A stretch of 64,000 nt of DNA from an uncultured Parabacteroides sp. (lineage in GTDB: Bacteria > Bacteroidota > Bacteroidia > Bacteroidales > Tannerellaceae), in assembly GCA_934725305.1 (NCBI GenBank), contig CAKVBA010000002.1, positions 42,549 through 106,548 of the forward strand. Direction: 5' to 3'. This document shows positions 8,608-63,825 of the stretch, piece after piece. The notes below the pieces were generated by a model, which searched no databases, was not told the DNA's origin, and saw only the letters and a list, made by a program, of their open reading frames with translations. The first letter of the stretch is position 1; each line of letters opens with the position of its first letter. Both the position numbers and the translations under genes were made by a program.

Positions 8608-8946
8608 AAATACAATAAGTCAACAGGCAGACAAGAGACTACTAATCCGGTCAAAAAGGAGTAAGCTATTTCCGGAAATTGGGTGCCTACCCATTTCCGA
8701 CGGAGTAGTTATTCCGTCCCAACGGAGTGCCTACCCATTTTCAAAAAAGTCCCTACCCTTTTTCCGAAAAGTCTATACCCTTTTTCCAAAAACTCTATAG
8801 ACTATTGAAAGAGAGGCTATAACCCCTTTTTTCAGGGTGTTTGGGCCGAGACAGATTCGTCTGTCAAGTCCGGCGAAGTTGCTCATTGTTTCTGCCGGAT
8901 CCGTTACCGCTTTTAGCAAATAATAATTCGGATAAAAACACAATAA
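8608..8946 (+). repeat. Intergenic repeat core, copy A
   Basis: This core of about 339 bp starts with AAATACAATAAG (8608-8619) and ends with AAAACACAATAAC (8934-8946), the two terminal direct repeats of the family. It contains the shared CAACAGGCAGACAAGAGACT block, an inverted GGGTRNCTAC/CGGAGTGCCTACCC section, and the 22-bp A-tract/T-tract array at about 8738-8800. The right part contains a hairpin, GACAGA-TTCG-TCTGTC. It occupies the convergent gap between the YrdC-family gene and susD. The rest of the 8493-9093 gap holds a short left arm (8568-8607) and the small palindromic element listed next. Confidence 0.85.
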
Positions 8947-8963
8947 CTATCTCTCAGCGCATA

Positions 8964-9040
8964 TTTAACCCAAATCGGTCATTAGAAAATTTCGCTCTCT
9001 TTTTGCACGAAAAAATCTCTAATGACCGATTTGAGTTAAA
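8964..9040. mobile_element. 77-bp palindromic element bounded by the family terminal inverted repeats
   Basis: The left end (8964-8985, containing AACCCAAATCGGTCATTAG) and the right end (9019-9040) are inverted copies with one mismatch over 22 bp, separated by 33 bp. The same ends bound the larger composite copies at 32742 and 50189. It looks like a minimal MITE-like derivative or internal deletion. No coding capacity is present. Confidence 0.6.
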
Positions 9041-17160: not shown

Positions 17161-17345
17161 TCATTTTTTCTTTTTCCAACGAAATAACCCATTTTCCATC
17201 CGGGCAGTTCCTGTTTAGAACCGCCCGTTTTTTGAGTTGGGTAACAAGTCCGTTGGAAAAGACAGAATGAATCCGTTTTGGGAAAAGGTCGGCATCTTTT
17301 TGAGAAAAGGGCGCACCCTTTTTGGAAAAAGGTCGGCATCGCTTT
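17161..17345. repeat. Distant relative of the intergenic repeat family (region F)
   Basis: This divergent gap between frr and surE has the same architecture as the five repeat cores but a different sequence. At about 17283-17345 there are three units with a 22-bp period, each an A-tract, a GC-rich centre and a T-tract (AAAAGGTCGGCATCTTTTT, AAAAGGGCGCACCCTTTTT, AAAAAGGTCGGCATCG then T7). GGGTAAC-n-TCCGTTGGA near 17240 resembles parts of copy B. The remainder, 17346-17477, contains two AACGGCATTAA repeats and nothing else I recognise. Confidence 0.5.
17201..17233 (+). terminator. Terminator-like hairpin with no upstream gene
   Basis: CGGGCAGTTC (17201-17210) pairs with GAACCGCCCG (17218-17227) with one mismatch, followed by six T. 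It points in the plus direction, but no plus-strand gene ends upstream in this divergent gap, so it may end a small RNA or belong to the repeat. Confidence 0.5.
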
Positions 17346-17520
17346 TTTTGAACGGCTTTTTAACGGCATTAAAACGGCATTAAAACACCGTTTAAACAGT
17401 GTTCCCAAAAGGAGCAGACTCTTTGCCGGGAATGGACAGTCATTCCTTTTCAGTCATCAAAAGACAAACGCTATTATTTGATAATTTCAATCCGCCAATG
17501 GGTATATAAAAGGATTTTAC

Positions 17521-23658: not shown

Positions 23659-23998
23659 GTTATTGTAATTTAAGGCAAAGTGTGTTTAGTAGAAATGGGT
23701 AACGATTCCATCCGAAATAACGGATGAATCCGTTGGAACTGACAGACGAGTCTGCCTCGACCCAAACGCCCTTCAAAAAGAGGTTATAGCCTATCTTTCA
23801 GGAGTCTATAGAGTCTTTGGAAAAAGGGTATAGACTTTTTGAAAAAAGGGTAGGGACTTTTTTGAAATTGGGTAGGCACTCCGCTGGGAAGGAATAACTA
23901 CTCCGTTGGAAATGGATAGTTACCCAATTTTCGCAAATAAACGAATCAGATCTGCCACCGCTAACGGCAGCTTGTCCGCTCGTTGGCTTATTGTATTT
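23659..23998 (-). repeat. Intergenic repeat core, copy B (inverted)
   Basis: This 340-bp copy is in the opposite orientation to the other four. Its ends are CTTATTGTATTT (23987-23998, the left end of the family) and GTTATTGTAATTT (23659-23671, the right end). The 22-bp A/T-tract array is at about 23805-23880. The block that matches CAGGCAGACAAGAGACT in other copies has diverged here. It fills most of the convergent gap between cydB and the DUF3109 gene. Confidence 0.8.
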
Positions 23999-24033: not shown

Positions 24034-24077
24034 GGGGTTGTGTTAAAACAGTTGTTTTTGGCACAGCCCCTTTTTTT
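24034..24077 (+). terminator. Terminator of the dispersed palindrome family, cyd side
   Basis: GGGGTTGTGTTAAAA pairs with TTTTGGCACAGCCCC using G-U pairs, followed by seven T. It is the likely end of the cyd transcript, about 380 bp after cydB, beyond repeat copy B. Confidence 0.65.
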
Positions 24078-24138
24078 AACCCAATTCGGTCATTAGATTA
24101 CGATTCGTGTTGGTGCTTGTTTTGAACAGGTTGCAATT
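24075..24138 (+). mobile_element. Solo left end of the repeat-associated element
   Basis: TTTAACCCAATTCGGTCATTAG-like end (24075-24096), then ATTACGATTCGTGTTGGTGC and on to TTGCAAT, matching the left arms of the composite copies at 32742 and 50189. Here it is on the plus strand while the adjacent core B is inverted, and no matching right end is seen. Confidence 0.55.
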
Positions 24139-26433: not shown

Positions 26434-26897
26434 ATGAGAATATTTCAAATGAATTGCCCACTATCAACAAATAACAACTTTTGTATCAGTTTATCTGCTC
26501 CCGACGGTTGGTTTCAGCAAATATTTCAACTGAGATTCCAATATCTGACGAAATAGCCCTCACAAATCAATCTCCTACTGGAAGAATTAAATTTATAAAA
26601 TTGCATAAGAGTAAAGGAAATATGCGTAATGCTAAAAATTAACATATTAATATCTTATTAATAATTCCTATATACATATATCCTATGTTTTATAGCATAT
26701 TATTGACACCACAAACAAAATGCCCCTATTTTAGCACACTAAATGACAATCTGATCCGGCATGCGTTTAGCATCGCTGTTCATCACTCCTTTTTGCCTCT
26801 GCTCTGAGGGCCGGAAACGGAGCAACTGCCCATCTCCAACAAAGTTCCTACCCTTTTAAAGCTGTTTTCATAACTTATACCTACCTTTACACCCGAT
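26434..26897. other. AT-rich intergenic stretch
   Basis: About 460 bp between gpmI and the YgjP-like gene. The part at 26590-26720 is very AT-rich. The last 60 bp contain AAAGTTCCTACCC, a single unit reminiscent of the intergenic repeat array, and TACCTTTA (26884-26891), a near-consensus -7 box just before the next gene. I see no gene or structured RNA. Confidence 0.4.
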
Positions 26898-32741: not shown

Positions 32742-33268
32742 TTTATCCCAAATCGGTCATTAGATTACGATTCTTGTTGGTGCTTGTTTTGAGCAGATTG
32801 CAATGGCTGCGTTGAAGGTATATTTATCAGCCACAAAAATACAATAAGCCAACAGGCAGACAAGAGACTGCTAATCCTATCAAAAAGGATTAAGCTATTT
32901 CCGAAAATTGGGTAACTACTCCGTTCGAACGGAGTGCCTACCCAATTCCAACGGAGTGCCTACCCAATTTCAAAAAAGTCCCTACCCATTTTTGAAAAAG
33001 TCTATACCCTTTTTCCCAAAAACCTATAAACTATTGAAAGAGAGCCTATAATACCTTTTTTCAGGGCGTTTGAACCGAGACAAAGTCGTCTGTCAAGTCC
33101 GGCGAAGTCGCCCGCCGTTTCTGCCGGATCTATTACCGCTTTTAGCAAATAATAATCCGAATAAAAACACAATAACTATCTCTCCGATGGCTATAGGCAG
33201 TATGTCGAGACAACCGATGAAAACATCATATTTATCATCCTTTCGCTCTAATGACCGATTTGCATTTA
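32742..33268 (+). mobile_element. Composite repeat element, copy C, with terminal inverted repeats
   Basis: Left end CCCAAATCGGTCATTAG (32747-32763) and right end CTAATGACCGATTT (33248-33261) are inverted over 14 bp. The octamer GCATTTAT occurs directly outside the left end (32739-32746) and directly outside the right end (33262-33269), as a target-site duplication would. Inside are the left arm (32764-32836), the repeat core and a right arm of about 70 bp. No transposase is encoded. Confidence 0.6.
32837..33176 (+). repeat. Intergenic repeat core, copy C
   Basis: This 340-bp core runs from AAATACAATAAG (32837-32848) to AAAACACAATAAC (33164-33176). It includes CAACAGGCAGACAAGAGACT, the CGGAGTGCCTACCCA units (here two in a row) and the A/T-tract array at about 32969-33025. 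It lies in the convergent gap between susD and ackA. Confidence 0.85.
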
Positions 33269-33291
33269 TGACACACTGACCGTCATAAAAC

Positions 33292-42676: not shown

Positions 42677-43017
42677 AAATACAATAAGTCAATGAACAGA
42701 CAAGAGATTACGAACCTCGTTAAAACGGAGTAGGCTATTTCCGGAAATTGGATACCTATCCATTTCCAACGGAATGCCTACCCAATCCGAACGGAGTGCC
42801 TATCCATTTTCAAAAAAGTCCCTACCCTTTTTTCAAAAAGTCTATAGACTAATTTCATAAAGTCTATAAACGCCTGAAAACCAGTCTATAACACATCTTC
42901 CAAGAGTATTTAAACCAAGACGGATTCGCCTATCAATTCCAACGGAATCGCCCGCCGTTTCAGACGGATTTGTTACCTGTTTCCAACAAGCAAGTTCATT
43001 GCTTAAAATACAATAAC
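42677..43017 (+). repeat. Intergenic repeat core, copy D (degenerate)
   Basis: This 341-bp copy runs from AAATACAATAAG (42677-42688) to AAAATACAATAAC (43005-43017). Its block reads AATGAACAGACAAGAGATT and the array units have drifted (TCTATAGACT replaces TCTATACCC), so it is the oldest-looking copy. It lies in a divergent gap between uvrA and the GH10-like gene. No terminal inverted repeats are recognisable, though GGTGTGTCATAAA just left of it is the reverse complement of TTTATGACACAC at the right edge of copy C. Confidence 0.75.
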
Positions 43018-45873: not shown

Positions 45874-48800
45874 TCAATGAACCAAGAAGATCTTTTTGTA
45901 GCGCTTTGTTATCCCCTTCGGATGATAAAGCTCTACATAAAAGATATACAAACCTTGTGTAAGAGAGCCACCATCTGCTCCTCGCCCATTCCAAGATAAC
46001 TTTCCCTTCGTACCTAACAAGACATGATTGGCAATCTCTGCCACTCGCCGTCCGGATGTATCAAACACATAGGCACGACAACTATATCCTGCCTGATCCA
46101 ACAGATAAGAAATGGTATAATCTCCCGTCCAATCCGAATAGATTGGCGATTCGATACCCAACAGTTCATCTCCTTCGCCGAACAGATCTTGTTGTGAATT
46201 GGCATATCCCGGTGTTCCATATCCGGCCGATTCAGCAGCAGAGGTCCAATTGTCTCTATCTTGTGTAGGCCGCTCATAACTGATACGCTCCAAGGCCACT
46301 CCTTTTTCATCCTTAATAGATGGAGCATGCCACAAAACAGAATAACAAACCTCATCAATCACCTCGAATGTTTTACTGTGGAACAATACGATATCGGAAG
46401 CTGTATTGGGCAATACCGGCAGATTCAATTCATAGAGACAAGAGGCATCTTTAACCAAATAGAAATCCTCAACTCCGGCTACCGACTTACTCAACACAAC
46501 ATAGCCTTTCGGTCCTATCGGTTCAGTAATGGAAGAGAGTGTGTAATGAGTTCCCAAATTACCGTCTCTCTTACGAATAGCCAATGATAAACCAGCGAGG
46601 GACAAAGGTCGATCTGTATGGTTGTATAGCTCTATGTATTCACTTCCATCGGTATAAGGATTGACCAGCAACTCACTAAACAATATCTCTCCTGATGCGA
46701 TATTCGTATCTCCTGTTATCTCCGGCTTATCGGGTTTATCCGGTTCCGGTGTTGGATCGGGATCAGGTTCTTCCGGTTCGGGTTTGGGAGTTGGATCGGG
46801 TTTCACTTCGCCCGAAGAGTTCTTTGCGCCGGGCGTTCCTCCGCTCTCCGCTGAACAGAGATGAAAGCCCTCTTCTGAACGTTCCCATGAAACGCCAGGT
46901 TTGGCCTTGCCATAGCTAATCTTATCAATCAACAGGCCGGAAGAATTTGTCAGCTGAAGAGTCTTTCCGCTATTATTCAACGGCAAGAAGGATTCTATTG
47001 GAACCTTTACGGCACTGGCCGCACAGATCATTGACAGCTCAGACGAATAGAGCACGGCATAACCTTTGGCAGACAAAGAAACTGCCGGAAGCTCTCTTTT
47101 ACGAGTACCGACCCAAAACAACAGGTCTTCTAAAGAGAATGACTTTTCCGTGGGATTATATAATTCTATATATTCCGGATACATACTGCCCTTAGGATCG
47201 GCCATCACCTCATTAATCAAAATTGATCCTTCGGCCGGTTCATCGGGTTTATCCGGTTCCGGTGTTGGATCTGGATTAGGTTCATCCGGTTCGGGCTTGG
47301 GAGTTGGATCGGGTTTCACTTCGCCCGAAGAGTTCTTTGCGCCGGGCGTTCCTCCGCTCTCCGCTGAACAGAGATGAAAGCCCTCTTCTGAACGTTCCCA
47401 TGAAACGCCAGGTTTGGCCTTGCCATAGCTAATCTTATCAATCAACAGGCCGGAAGAATTTGTCAGCTGAAGAGTCTTTCCGCTATTATTCAACGGCAAG
47501 AAGGATTCTATTGGAACCTTTACGGCACTGGCCGCACAGATCATTGACAGCTCAGACGAATAGAGCACGGCATAACCTTTGGCAGACAAAGAAACTGCCG
47601 GAAGCTCTCTTTTACGAGTACCGACCCAAAACAACAGGTCTTCTAAAGAGAATGACTTTTCCGTGGGATTATATAATTCTATATATTCCGGATACATACT
47701 GCCCTTAGGATCGGCCATCACCTCATTAATCAAAATTGATCCTTCGGCCGGTTCATCGGGTTTATCCGGTTCCGGTGTTGGATCTGGATTAGGTTCATCC
47801 GGTTCGGGCTTGGGAGTTGGATCGGGTTTCACTTCGCCCGAAGAGTTCTTTGCACCGGGCGTTCCTCCGCTCTCTGCTGAACAGAGATGAAAGCCCTCTT
47901 CTGAACGTTCCCAAGAAACGCCGGGTTTGGCCTTGCCATAGCTGATCGTATCGATCAACAGACCGGAAGCATTCGCCAGCTGAAGAGTCTGTCCCTTATT
48001 ATTCAACGGCAAGAAGGATTCTATCGGAATCTTTACGGCACTGGGGTCACAAATCATAGACAGTTCGGACGAATAGAGCACGGCATAGCCTTTAGCGGAC
48101 AATGTTACCGCCGGAAGTGTTCTCTTACGACGGCCGACCCAAAACAACAGACCTTCTAAAGAGAATGACTTTTCCGTGGGATTATATAATTCTATATATT
48201 CCGGATAAATACTACCTTTAGGATCGGCCATCACCTCATTAATCAAGATTGATCCTTCGGTCGGTTCATCGGGTTGCTCTGGTTCCGGTGTTGGCTCTGG
48301 ATCAGGTTCATCCGGTTCGGGCTTGGGAGTTGGATCGGGTTTCACTTCGCCCGAAGAATTCTTTGCACCGGGCGTTCCTCCTTCTTCTGCGGAACAGAGA
48401 TGGAAGCCATCTGCGGAACGTTCCCAAGAAACACCGGGTTTGGCCTTGCCATAGCTAATCTTATCAATCAACAGGCCAGAAGCATTCGTCAGCTGAAGAG
48501 TCTTTCCCTTATTATTCAATGGTAAGAAGGATTCTATTGGAACCTTTACGGCACTGGGAGCACAAATCATAGACAGCTCGGATGAATAGAGCACGGCATA
48601 ACCTTTGGCGGACAATGTAACCGCCGAAAGCTCTCTTTTACGAGTTCCAACCCATAAAAGACAGCCTTTCAACGACACAGATTGCTCTGTCGTATTATAT
48701 AATTCTATGTATTCCGGATACATACTACCCTTAGGATCGGCCATTACCTCATTAATCAAGATTGAGCCCTCTTGAAGCCCATCTACTCCTTCCGGTTTAT

Positions 48801-48903
48801 TGGGTTGTTGAAGTTCTACACCACACCTTTCAACGGTGTCACTAAATCGGGCAAATACACAAATAGGTAGTAATAACGCAAATATTAGAAATATTCGTCT
48901 CAT
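45874..48903 (-). CDS. Secreted lamin-tail-domain protein with four near-identical tandem repeats
   Basis: The 1009-residue protein has a signal peptide (MRRIFLIFALLLPICVFA). Lamin-tail domains start near residues 48, 219, 390 and 561, each opening ILINEVMADPKGS and YPEYIELYN, with an exact 171-residue period. A fifth, divergent domain starts near 735 (GEILFSELLVNP). Pro/Glu/Asp-rich linkers (PDPTPKPEPDEP) join them. Residues about 930-1009 resemble a FlgD-like Ig domain (GRRVAEIANHVLLGTKGKLSWNGRGADG), often seen at the ends of secreted Bacteroidetes proteins. The function is probably structural or adhesive at the cell surface. It is transcribed divergently from asd. Confidence 0.85.
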   Translation of the reverse strand: MRRIFLIFALLLPICVFARFSDTVERCGVELQQPNKPEGVDGLQEGSILINEVMADPKGSMYPEYIELYNTTEQSVSLKGCLLWVGTRKRELSAVTLSAKGYAVLYSSELSMICAPSAVKVPIESFLPLNNKGKTLQLTNASGLLIDKISYGKAKPGVSWERSADGFHLCSAEEGGTPGAKNSSGEVKPDPTPKPEPDEPDPEPTPEPEQPDEPTEGSILINEVMADPKGSIYPEYIELYNPTEKSFSLEGLLFWVGRRKRTLPAVTLSAKGYAVLYSSELSMICDPSAVKIPIESFLPLNNKGQTLQLANASGLLIDTISYGKAKPGVSWERSEEGFHLCSAESGGTPGAKNSSGEVKPDPTPKPEPDEPNPDPTPEPDKPDEPAEGSILINEVMADPKGSMYPEYIELYNPTEKSFSLEDLLFWVGTRKRELPAVSLSAKGYAVLYSSELSMICAASAVKVPIESFLPLNNSGKTLQLTNSSGLLIDKISYGKAKPGVSWERSEEGFHLCSAESGGTPGAKNSSGEVKPDPTPKPEPDEPNPDPTPEPDKPDEPAEGSILINEVMADPKGSMYPEYIELYNPTEKSFSLEDLLFWVGTRKRELPAVSLSAKGYAVLYSSELSMICAASAVKVPIESFLPLNNSGKTLQLTNSSGLLIDKISYGKAKPGVSWERSEEGFHLCSAESGGTPGAKNSSGEVKPDPTPKPEPEEPDPDPTPEPDKPDKPEITGDTNIASGEILFSELLVNPYTDGSEYIELYNHTDRPLSLAGLSLAIRKRDGNLGTHYTLSSITEPIGPKGYVVLSKSVAGVEDFYLVKDASCLYELNLPVLPNTASDIVLFHSKTFEVIDEVCYSVLWHAPSIKDEKGVALERISYERPTQDRDNWTSAAESAGYGTPGYANSQQDLFGEGDELLGIESPIYSDWTGDYTISYLLDQAGYSCRAYVFDTSGRRVAEIANHVLLGTKGKLSWNGRGADGGSLTQGLYIFYVELYHPKGITKRYKKIFLVH
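46784..47853 (-). repeat. Exact 513-bp tandem duplication inside the lamin-tail gene
   Basis: Sequence from about 46784 to 47340 recurs without a difference I can see at an offset of +513 bp (47297 to about 47853). Repeat units one and two of the protein (nearer its N-terminus) differ from these at many synonymous and some non-synonymous sites, so the last two units were copied most recently. Confidence 0.85.
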
Positions 48904-50067: not shown

Positions 50068-50135
50068 AAGAGGCTATTCTATTGCCCCTACGAGGTTGTA
50101 TCATGATTGTTCTTTAATCGCGGCCTCATCCTTAT

Positions 50136-50184
50136 AAAGTCTGCAAGTTTCTCTGTATAAAAAGACAGGAGCTTGCAGACTTTT
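50136..50184 (+). terminator. Terminator after asd
   Basis: AAAGTCTGCAAG (50136-50147) pairs perfectly with CTTGCAGACTTT (50172-50183), followed by T residues. Confidence 0.75.
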
Positions 50185-50188
50185 CTGC

Positions 50189-50787
50189 TTTAACCCAAAA
50201 CGGTCATTAGATTACGATTCTTGTTGGTGCTTGTTTGGAACAGATTGTAATGGCTGCATTGAAGACTTATTTTTCATCCATAAAATACAATAAGCCAACA
50301 GGCAGACAAGAGACTACTAATCCGGTCAAAATGGAGTAAGCTATTTCCGGAAATTGGGTAACTACTCCGCCGGGACGGAGTAGTTATTCCGTCCGAACGG
50401 AGTGCCTACCCAATTTCAAAAAAGTCCCTACCCTTTTTTGAAAAAGTCTATACCCTTTTTTCCAAAAACTCTATAGAGGACTATAATCCATTTTTTCAGG
50501 GTGTTTGGATCGAAGCAGATTCGCCTGTCAAGCCTGGCAAAGTAACCCGTTGTTTCTGCCGGATTCGTTACCGTTTTTAGTAAATAATAATCCGGATAAA
50601 AATACAATAACTATCCCTCAGCGCATATTTAATTCAGAGAGGATAGACTATTCATTTATATAAACAGGCAAGTTGATGTTTATTCACTTGAGAAGCATTA
50701 GCCGAAAGAAGAGCTGACAAGAATTGGAAAGAATAAAAATAGTCAGCTGTTTTACTTTTTCGTTCTAATGACCAATTTGGGTTTAAA
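50189..50787 (+). mobile_element. Composite repeat element, copy E, with terminal inverted repeats
   Basis: Left end 50189-50210 (AACCCAAAACGGTCATTAG) and right end 50765-50787 (CTAATGACCAATTTGGGTT) are inverted with few mismatches over about 20 bp. Inside are a left arm (ATTACGATTCTTGTTGGTGC onward), the repeat core and a right arm of about 150 bp that begins CTATCCCTCAGCGCATATTT, as does copy A. At 599 bp it is the most complete member. No coding region is present. Confidence 0.65.
50283..50611 (+). repeat. Intergenic repeat core, copy E
   Basis: This 329-bp core runs from AAATACAATAAG (50283-50294) to AAAATACAATAAC (50599-50611). It shows the family features clearly: CAACAGGCAGACAAGAGACT, an inverted GACGGAGTAG/CTACTCCG section, and array units AAAAAAGTCCCTACCCTTTT and AAAAAGTCTATACCCTTTT at about 50418-50475. 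Confidence 0.85.
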
Positions 50788-50956
50788 ATACAAGGCGCTG
50801 AGCCGACGCTGCAATAGCAAGAGGATTGTTTGCCGGTGTAGCCACATTACTGCCAGAGATGTTCCTTCTCTTTCATAGCCAGGCCAAAGCGATAAAAAAA
50901 CAGTCCATTTACTCCAAATTTTTCACTCCTGAGATTTTCTTTTTTCTCTTTTTTTT

Positions 50957-63610: not shown

Positions 63611-63694
63611 GCCCAGATGGCGGAATTGGTAGACGCGTTGGTCTCAAACACCAATGGATTCACTTCCATCCCGGTTCGATCCCGGGTCTGGGTA
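63611..63694 (+). tRNA. tRNA-Leu (anticodon CAA)
   Basis: The 84-nt gene folds as a class II tRNA. The acceptor GCCCAGA pairs with TCTGGGT (one G-U), the D arm contains AATTGGTAGAC, and the anticodon stem TTGGT/ACCAA encloses the loop CTCAAAC, giving anticodon CAA for codon TTG. The T arm CCGGTTCGATCCCGG is standard. The CCA end is not encoded. Confidence 0.95.
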
Positions 63695-63741: not shown

Positions 63742-63825
63742 GCCCAGATGGCGGAATTGGTAGACGCGTTGGTCTCAAACACCAATGGATTCACTTCCAT
63801 CCCGGTTCGATCCCGGGTCTGGGTA
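63742..63825 (+). tRNA. tRNA-Leu (anticodon CAA), second identical copy
   Basis: All 84 nt are identical to the copy at 63611. The two are 131 bp apart start to start, and the 47-bp spacer is not repeated elsewhere nearby. They share one promoter and one terminator. Confidence 0.95.

What the first reader, a model, noticed from the sequence alone, without database searches (positions are those of the whole stretch)
50283..50611. Five-copy family of about 340-bp intergenic repeats with conserved direct ends
Cores at 8608-8946, 23659-23998 (inverted), 32837-33176, 42677-43017 and 50283-50611 are 329-341 bp long. All begin with AAATACAATAAG and end with AAAAYACAATAAC or a close variant. All sit between genes, and three of the five are in gaps between convergent genes. 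Length is held while sequence drifts, which argues for a constrained unit and not chance similarity. Five copies in 64 kb suggests hundreds per genome. They contain no gene, yet fold potential (GACAGA-TTCG-TCTGTC and a CCGGC/GCCGG stem on the right side) hints at a structured RNA or a DNA-architecture element. I do not recognise it as a named family.
Basis: partly seen in the sequence, partly recalled or inferred. Interest (0 to 1): 0.78.

Follow-up and report, generated by a model that had tools for sequence, protein, structure and literature searches.

The report
Intergenic repeat built on 22-bp palindrome ladder
Five related non-coding DNA elements of about 340 bp sit between genes of a bacterium related to Parabacteroides; each carries a ladder of short palindromes spaced about two DNA turns apart, and at least two of them lie inside a small transposon-like element.

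Summary
In detail: five homologous cores (329-341 bp) lie at the stated places, with abrupt ends (AAATACAATAAG ... AATAAC); the model finds no other full copy in the window. (1) c3 and c5 lie inside a larger element with CCCAAATCGGTCATTAGA inverted ends and 5-bp target duplications (TTTAT, TTTAA); c1 shares part of it, degraded. c2 and c4 lack it, so the core also spread another way. (2) The middle of the core, about 150 bp, is a 22-bp-period array of palindromes with symmetry axes mostly 11 bp apart. (3) Arrays of other sequence but the same geometry are common in intergenic DNA of six sampled Parabacteroides-like genomes: 63 of 152 palindrome pairs fall at multiples of 11 bp (about 15 if distances were even; 16 of 158 in 14 other Bacteroidia). 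Related species can hold different-sequence arrays in the same gap (few cases). A structured-RNA reading lacks covariation support. No full-length core was found in 123 genomes of the nearest family sampled. Closest known: PINSR of Prevotella intermedia (lineage-specific intergenic repeat without inverted ends) and BrickBuilt of Porphyromonas gingivalis (leader, 23-nt repeats, tail). Eight literature searches listed nothing on the ladder class. Function is inferred, not shown.

The parts
8608..8947 (+). core copy c1
   Evidence: R1 match 325 bits; ends checked
23659..23998 (-). core copy c2, beginning 4 bases after the last base of the cydB stop codon; no outer element
   Evidence: R1 match 296 bits
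32837..33176 (+). core copy c3
   Evidence: R1 match 312 bits
42677..43017 (+). core copy c4, divergent gap; no outer element
   Evidence: R1 match 284 bits
50283..50611 (+). core copy c5 (the finding); shorter through a 12-bp gap in the array part
   Evidence: R1 match 298 bits; alignment
50349..50498 (.). 22-bp dyad array inside c5 (approximate; alignment columns 67-227 in every copy)
   Evidence: TRF period 22; dyad centres of c5 at core positions 66, 90, 101, 112, 146, 157, 168, about 180, 191, 196
50194..50781 (+). outer element carrying c5, with inverted ends CCCAAA.CGGTCATTAGA
50189..50193 (.). left target duplication TTTAA of the c5 outer element (right copy 50782-50786)
32747..33264 (+). 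outer element carrying c3; last two bases of the right end changed
32742..32746 (.). left target duplication TTTAT of the c3 outer element (right copy 33265-33269)
8969..9035 (.). short element with the same inverted ends, right of c1; flanks TTTAA and TTAAA are not an exact duplication
24075..24137 (+). isolated left end of an outer element, inverted relative to c2 and outside it
   Evidence: BLAST 90% to the c5 left arm
17235..17404 (.). second 22-bp array of different sequence, in a divergent gap
   Evidence: TRF 17276-17340; model match over positions 70-235
26816..26881 (+). probable relic of the array part
   Evidence: model positions 114-172, 18 bits

Best explanation
The core is a lineage-restricted, non-coding interspersed repeat of modular plan: a leader of about 66 bp, a central 22-bp-period array of palindromes (about 150 bp), and a tail of about 115 bp with small hairpins. 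Shown: c3 and c5 lie between inverted ends with exact 5-bp duplications and share the whole left arm; c1 shares part of it. Inferred: an ancestral core came to lie in a non-autonomous inverted-repeat element and was carried by it; the right arms were later replaced or rearranged. Inferred: c2 and c4 descend from a separate dispersal of the core by an unknown route without target duplication; its direct ends could be recombination sites. Inferred: what is maintained is the array's geometry in double-stranded DNA (two-fold axes about one helical turn apart), acting as a same-face docking ladder for a DNA-binding protein or extruding as hairpins under supercoiling, and not as a defined RNA. Whether the host benefits is open.
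For: Inverted ends and duplications; two random intergenic 5-mers of the window agree with probability 0.002; two cases here and two in relatives (L018 ATAAA, L010 ATAAT). Left arms: c3-c5 88% over 92 bp, c1-c3 85% over 53 bp; right terminal 28 bp of c3-c5 86%. The array is the most alike segment in 5 of 7 comparisons between independent lineages, e.g. c1-c2 0.89 against leader 0.61 and tail 0.67. Dyad axes in the cores. Same geometry with other sequences in relatives: 35 of 43 intergenic tandem arrays have period 21-23; gap-based recount 30 of 37, with 3 such arrays in ten shuffles together. TRF-independent spacing: 63 of 152 palindrome pairs (9-60 bp apart) at 11/22/33/44/55 bp in six genomes and 11 of 27 in the window, against 5 of 52 possible distances; shuffles give about 3.8 and 0.2; 14 other Bacteroidia 16 of 158. 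Units are palindromic: 0.642 against null 0.526, sd 0.012, n=35. In G410 the cydB|DUF3109 convergent gap is at most about 70 bp with a terminator-like hairpin, against 497 bp here.
Against: Three core lineages (c1/c3/c5, c2, c4) from one window; no second genome with the core. The leader, not the array, is most alike in c1-c4 and c4-c5, and c3-c4 is nearly tied. At arms of 5 bp or more c2 shows only three axes, and the axes at 66/79 and between 112 and 146 are 13 and 34 bp apart, not multiples of 11. High array identity could come from conversion. No parent transposase: in 10 of 38 genomes with PF13701 matches no locus had a pair of ends around the gene; one (L042) had a pair on one side of it. 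No binding protein or expression data.
Confidence: 0.55

Rival explanations
1. A purely neutral, selfish repeat; the 22-bp ladder is a by-product of replication slippage and palindrome correction, with no binding partner.
For: Only intergenic; presence differs between relatives. A 147-bp array-bearing stretch absent from G406 is bounded by a direct AAAATAT, which fits deletion or insertion (by reading). PINSR in Prevotella is likewise amplified with no known function.
Against: Slippage does not by itself explain why unrelated sequences share one 22-bp register, or why arms of units stay constant while their centres vary in several arrays (by reading).
Confidence: 0.3
2. A 3'-end element: a tandem bidirectional terminator or mRNA-end stabiliser placed after genes.
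For: Three of five copies lie in convergent gaps, and c2 starts right after the cydB stop. Units of the AAAAAG...CTTTTT type could fold at RNA level on both strands; fold z -2.3 to -5.9.
Against: c4 is divergent. In six relatives the arrays occur in all gap types (8 convergent, 8 divergent, 14 tandem; per kb 0.58, 0.47, 0.34). Separate terminator-like hairpins stand beside c1, c2, c3 and c5 (by reading). Many units of the class have no terminator form (by reading).
Confidence: 0.15
3. A structured non-coding RNA gene family.
For: Fold energies below shuffles; tail hairpins in several copies.
Against: Both strands fold; covariation term unfavourable, 6 of 72 pairs with both sides changed; no Rfam match above gathering; no TTTG/TAnnTTTG promoter pair (recalled consensus) in or within 20 bp of the cores.
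Confidence: 0.08
4. A cassette-like unit moved by site-specific recombination between its direct AAATACAATAA ends.
For: Direct ends conserved in all five copies, without visible target duplication at c2 or c4.
Against: No recombinase was looked for or seen, and no empty single-site copy; apart from the core ends the window has 6 one-mismatch matches to the 11-mer.
Confidence: 0.07

Closest known systems
PINSR of Prevotella intermedia (PMC4755523: passages and section 3.4 read)
   Same: Intergenic, most likely non-coding, lineage-specific, without terminal inverted repeats; fixed length (188 bp); 177 and 184 copies per genome; function unknown.
   Different: 188 bp against 340 bp; other genus. 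The paper's section mentions no tandem or palindromic middle and no direct ends; its consensus is in a figure, so sequences were not compared.
BrickBuilt of Porphyromonas gingivalis (PMC4596501: abstract, sections 5, 7 part 1, 8, 10 and passages read)
   Same: Intergenic; leader, 23-nt tandem repeats, tail; 19 non-identical copies; predicted stem-loops; 84-991 nt.
   Different: BrickBuilt has inverted ends (consensus GAGACCTTCGCA) and 1 to 22.8 repeats. The core has direct ends and nearly fixed length; the outer element's inverted ends have another sequence.
BOX elements of Streptococcus pneumoniae (recalled, not searched)
   Same: Modular leader, repeated middle, tail; intergenic, non-autonomous.
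   Different: Other unit length and sequence; distant phylum.
MITEs with 5-bp A+T-rich target duplications (parent family unknown)
   Same: The outer element has inverted ends and 5-bp duplications.
   Different: Carries the core as cargo; parent transposase not found.
REP palindromes (recalled; PMC1525189 seen as listing and one passage)
   Same: Dispersed intergenic palindromes.
   Different: Here palindrome sequences differ between arrays and species while the 22-bp geometry recurs.

Membership tests
BrickBuilt | 22-23-nt tandem repeats between a leader and a tail | tested here: met
BrickBuilt | terminal inverted repeats like GAGACCTTCGCA | tested here: not met
   core ends are direct AAATACAATAA; outer ends are CCCAAATCGGTCATTAGA; BrickBuilt ends
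BrickBuilt | outward promoter activity | not testable with these tools
   needs reporter assays
PINSR | 188-bp consensus sequence | not tested
   consensus is in a figure not held; length differs (340 against 188 bp)
PINSR | intergenic, without terminal inverted repeats | tested here: met
   core ends are direct; gaps
PINSR | more than a hundred copies per genome | not testable with these tools
   genome not held
MITE (outer element of c3 and c5) | terminal inverted repeats | tested here: met
MITE (outer element of c3 and c5) | target site duplication | tested here: met
   TTTAA and TTTAT
MITE (outer element of c3 and c5) | autonomous relative sharing the ends | tested here: inconclusive
   one transposase family tested (PF13701), no pair of ends around a gene; others not tested
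MITE (core alone) | terminal inverted repeats | tested here: not met
   ends are direct
Rfam RNA family | covariance-model match above gathering score | tested here: not met

The most novel reading that the evidence does not exclude
Parabacteroides-like genomes carry a genome-wide class of intergenic 'dyad ladders' (22-bp period, axis every 11 bp) whose geometry is kept while the sequence is replaced, even in the same gap of related species. They are platforms for a filament-forming or face-selective DNA-binding protein, and the 340-bp core is one mobile package of such a ladder.
Probability: 0.25. Interest if true: 0.8.

Novelty: new variant of a known kind. Interest (0 to 1): 0.55.

Why it matters
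Repeats whose geometry is fixed while their sequence changes are unusual: they point to recognition of DNA shape or register, or to a generating mechanism locked to two helical turns. If the sample is representative, 35 arrays in 896 kb would mean somewhat over 150 in a 4.5-Mb genome. That would bear on nucleoid organisation, gene-end insulation and assembly breaks in a gut genus, and it can be tested by deletion, DNA pulldown and supercoiling assays. The core itself adds a third lineage-specific intergenic repeat of this order, beside PINSR and BrickBuilt.

Tried and rejected
BrickBuilt membership: rejected on end sequences. Structured RNA: no covariation support. Phage or plasmid origin: viral contigs hold neither a core 23-mer nor the outer 20-mer as exact matches; a protein beside c5 found no relative there; no match of 50100-50800 in plasmids. 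The one genome-contig hit (L001, Chitinophagales) is a lone 21-bp match, taken as chance. Core in relatives: BLAST over 38 genomes gave matches in 3, over the outer end only; a 25-base array pattern with 2 mismatches gave 0 of 38; the sequence-only model gave 25 of 123 genomes, mostly over the array part. Of the 30 loci fetched, 17 have a period 20-24 array beside the match, 5 more a 42-44 period, 8 neither. Orthologous gaps for c1: the neighbours after YrdC differ in G340 and G319. The script ignored contig strand, so only its L190 lead was used, placed and read. Promoter scan negative. Literature: eight searches listed no paper on 22-bp palindromic arrays in Parabacteroides; I judged by titles and abstract starts, plus passages of PMC5771137, PMC4755523 and PMC1525189. 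The library is partial.

Full report
What is there. Five cores are confirmed. The independent lineages show sharp ends: conservation begins with AAATACAATAAG and stops at AATAAC. At gathering thresholds Rfam finds only two tRNAs in the window. A bifunctional MurF-Alr protein of the window is 85% identical to proteins named Parabacteroides, but no whole genome is held.

An outer element. The 20-mer AACCCAAATCGGTCATTAGA occurs seven times in the window with up to 3 mismatches, against 0.01 expected. Around c5 (50194-50781) and c3 (32747-33264) two inverted copies bracket the core, and exact 5-bp duplications flank them, TTTAA and TTTAT. The left arms of c3 and c5 match over 92 bp; c1 matches them over about 55 bp. 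The right arms match only over their first 8 to 21 bp and their last 17 to 28 bp, which argues against plain copying of one composite. c2 and c4 have no such frame; an isolated left end lies beyond c2, inverted and outside it. Among 38 genomes of the genus of G340, 9 have a 16-base piece of the end with up to 1 mismatch; G403 has 60 sites, six pairs of them 170-173 bp apart in inverted order; reversed-pattern controls gave 2 hits in all (pair count by reading). Two elements with these ends, in G428 and G403, have 5-bp duplications ATAAA and ATAAT.

The core itself. Tandem Repeats Finder sees a 22-bp array in each copy. At arms of 5 bp or more, palindrome centres fall at core positions 66, 79, 90, 101, 112, 146, 157, 168, 179-180 and 190-196, not all in every copy: c2 shows only 146, 157 and 168 (positions 60-235 looked at). 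Most steps are 11 bp, but 66-79 is 13 and 112-146 is 34. By segment the array is the most alike part in 5 of 7 comparisons between independent lineages (c3-c4 nearly tied); in c1-c4 and c4-c5 it is the leader. Predicted folding is below shuffles on both strands (z -3.4 to -5.9 forward, -2.3 to -5.4 reverse); three other long gaps of the window, one strand, first 400 bases at most, give 0.15, -1.44 and 0.06. A single consensus fold is not supported by covariation.

A wider class. A sequence-only model of the cores hit 25 of 123 family genomes, mostly over the array part; 22 of the 30 loci fetched carry a 20-24 or 42-44-bp array there. I then sampled 896 kb of six Parabacteroides-like genomes and stretches of 14 other Bacteroidia. 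The choice was not blind: four of the six (G402, G405, G408, G431) had model hits, and the G405 stretches were laid around two of them. Arrays of period 21-23 make up 35 of 43 intergenic arrays in the six (83.7 kb intergenic) and 7 of 10 in the fourteen (about 102 kb), so the period is favoured in both, and the rate per kb is about six times higher in the six. Not every such array is palindromic (unit scores 0.36 to 0.91). Ten shuffles of the six genomes' gaps gave three such arrays in all. Without Tandem Repeats Finder, distances between palindrome centres pile up at 11, 22, 33, 44 and 55 bp: 63 of 152 pairs in the six, 11 of 27 in the window, 16 of 158 in the others, against 5 of 52 possible distances (sums mine); shuffles give about 3.8, 0.2 and 6.7. 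Axes at 11 bp follow from a palindromic 22-bp unit and are not a separate finding. The signal is uneven: G319 gives 33 of the 63, G408 and G340 one each. Without the two known G405 stretches it is 61 of 146; without G319, 30 of 109; G340 and G319 alone, which had no listed model hit, 34 of 51.

Turnover at one place. Two G431 arrays were used as queries. The AGTTTC family gives array-only matches in 15 of 38 genomes; the TGCCA family in G431 and G406, with single weak matches in G397 and G398 (genome counts by reading the rows). At the second gap G431 and G406 hold TGCCA...TGGCA arrays, G402 holds a different four-unit array, and the nine other relatives aligned show none (by reading). At the first gap G431 and G413 hold the AGTTTC type, while G406 and G402 hold other arrays (also seen by TRF) and G408 and G414 appear to; the left side of that gap is not orthologous in all 14 rows, so this is weaker. 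A synteny comparison over 100 kb had 37 gaps in G431, 21 with an ortholog in G406 and 18 in G402. There one array is shared by G431 and G402 but missing from G406 with 147 bp, and one divergent-gap array is kept in all three with changed centres and mostly constant arms (by reading). These are few cases.

Known relatives. It shows that lineage-specific intergenic repeats of this sort are a known kind in the phylum. BrickBuilt is closer in plan (leader, 23-nt repeats, tail) but fails on ends. Neither repeat's sequence could be compared.

Reading. The finding is a real, modular, interspersed non-coding element. At least c3 and c5, probably also c1, lie in an inverted-repeat element. The middle belongs to a geometric class of intergenic arrays that looks common in Parabacteroides-like genomes. 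The protein-ladder function is inference; a neutral slippage origin remains a serious rival.

Noticed in passing
window 17235-17404: A second 22-bp array of different sequence in a divergent gap.
   Followed up: partly
window 45874-48903: Long gene with a 33-bp tandem stretch recurring about every 510 bp (46739, 47246, 47759), so probably an internally repeated protein.
   Followed up: no
window 63611-63694 and 63742-63825: Two tRNA genes with the same score side by side.
   Followed up: no
L010, L012, L020 and other G403 loci: Elements of about 190 bp with the outer ends; 60 end sites in one 2.5-Mb genome, a number of them near contig ends.
   Followed up: partly
L014, L016, L019, L039, L042: Palindromic elements of about 70 bp with similar ends in several relatives; the right arm of c5 resembles the one in L042 (by reading).
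   Followed up: partly
L205 2730-2788: A further 22-bp palindromic array directly downstream of cydB in G403.
   Followed up: no
L204 3918-4115: A 41-bp tandem repeat, 4.8 copies, in G430.
   Followed up: no
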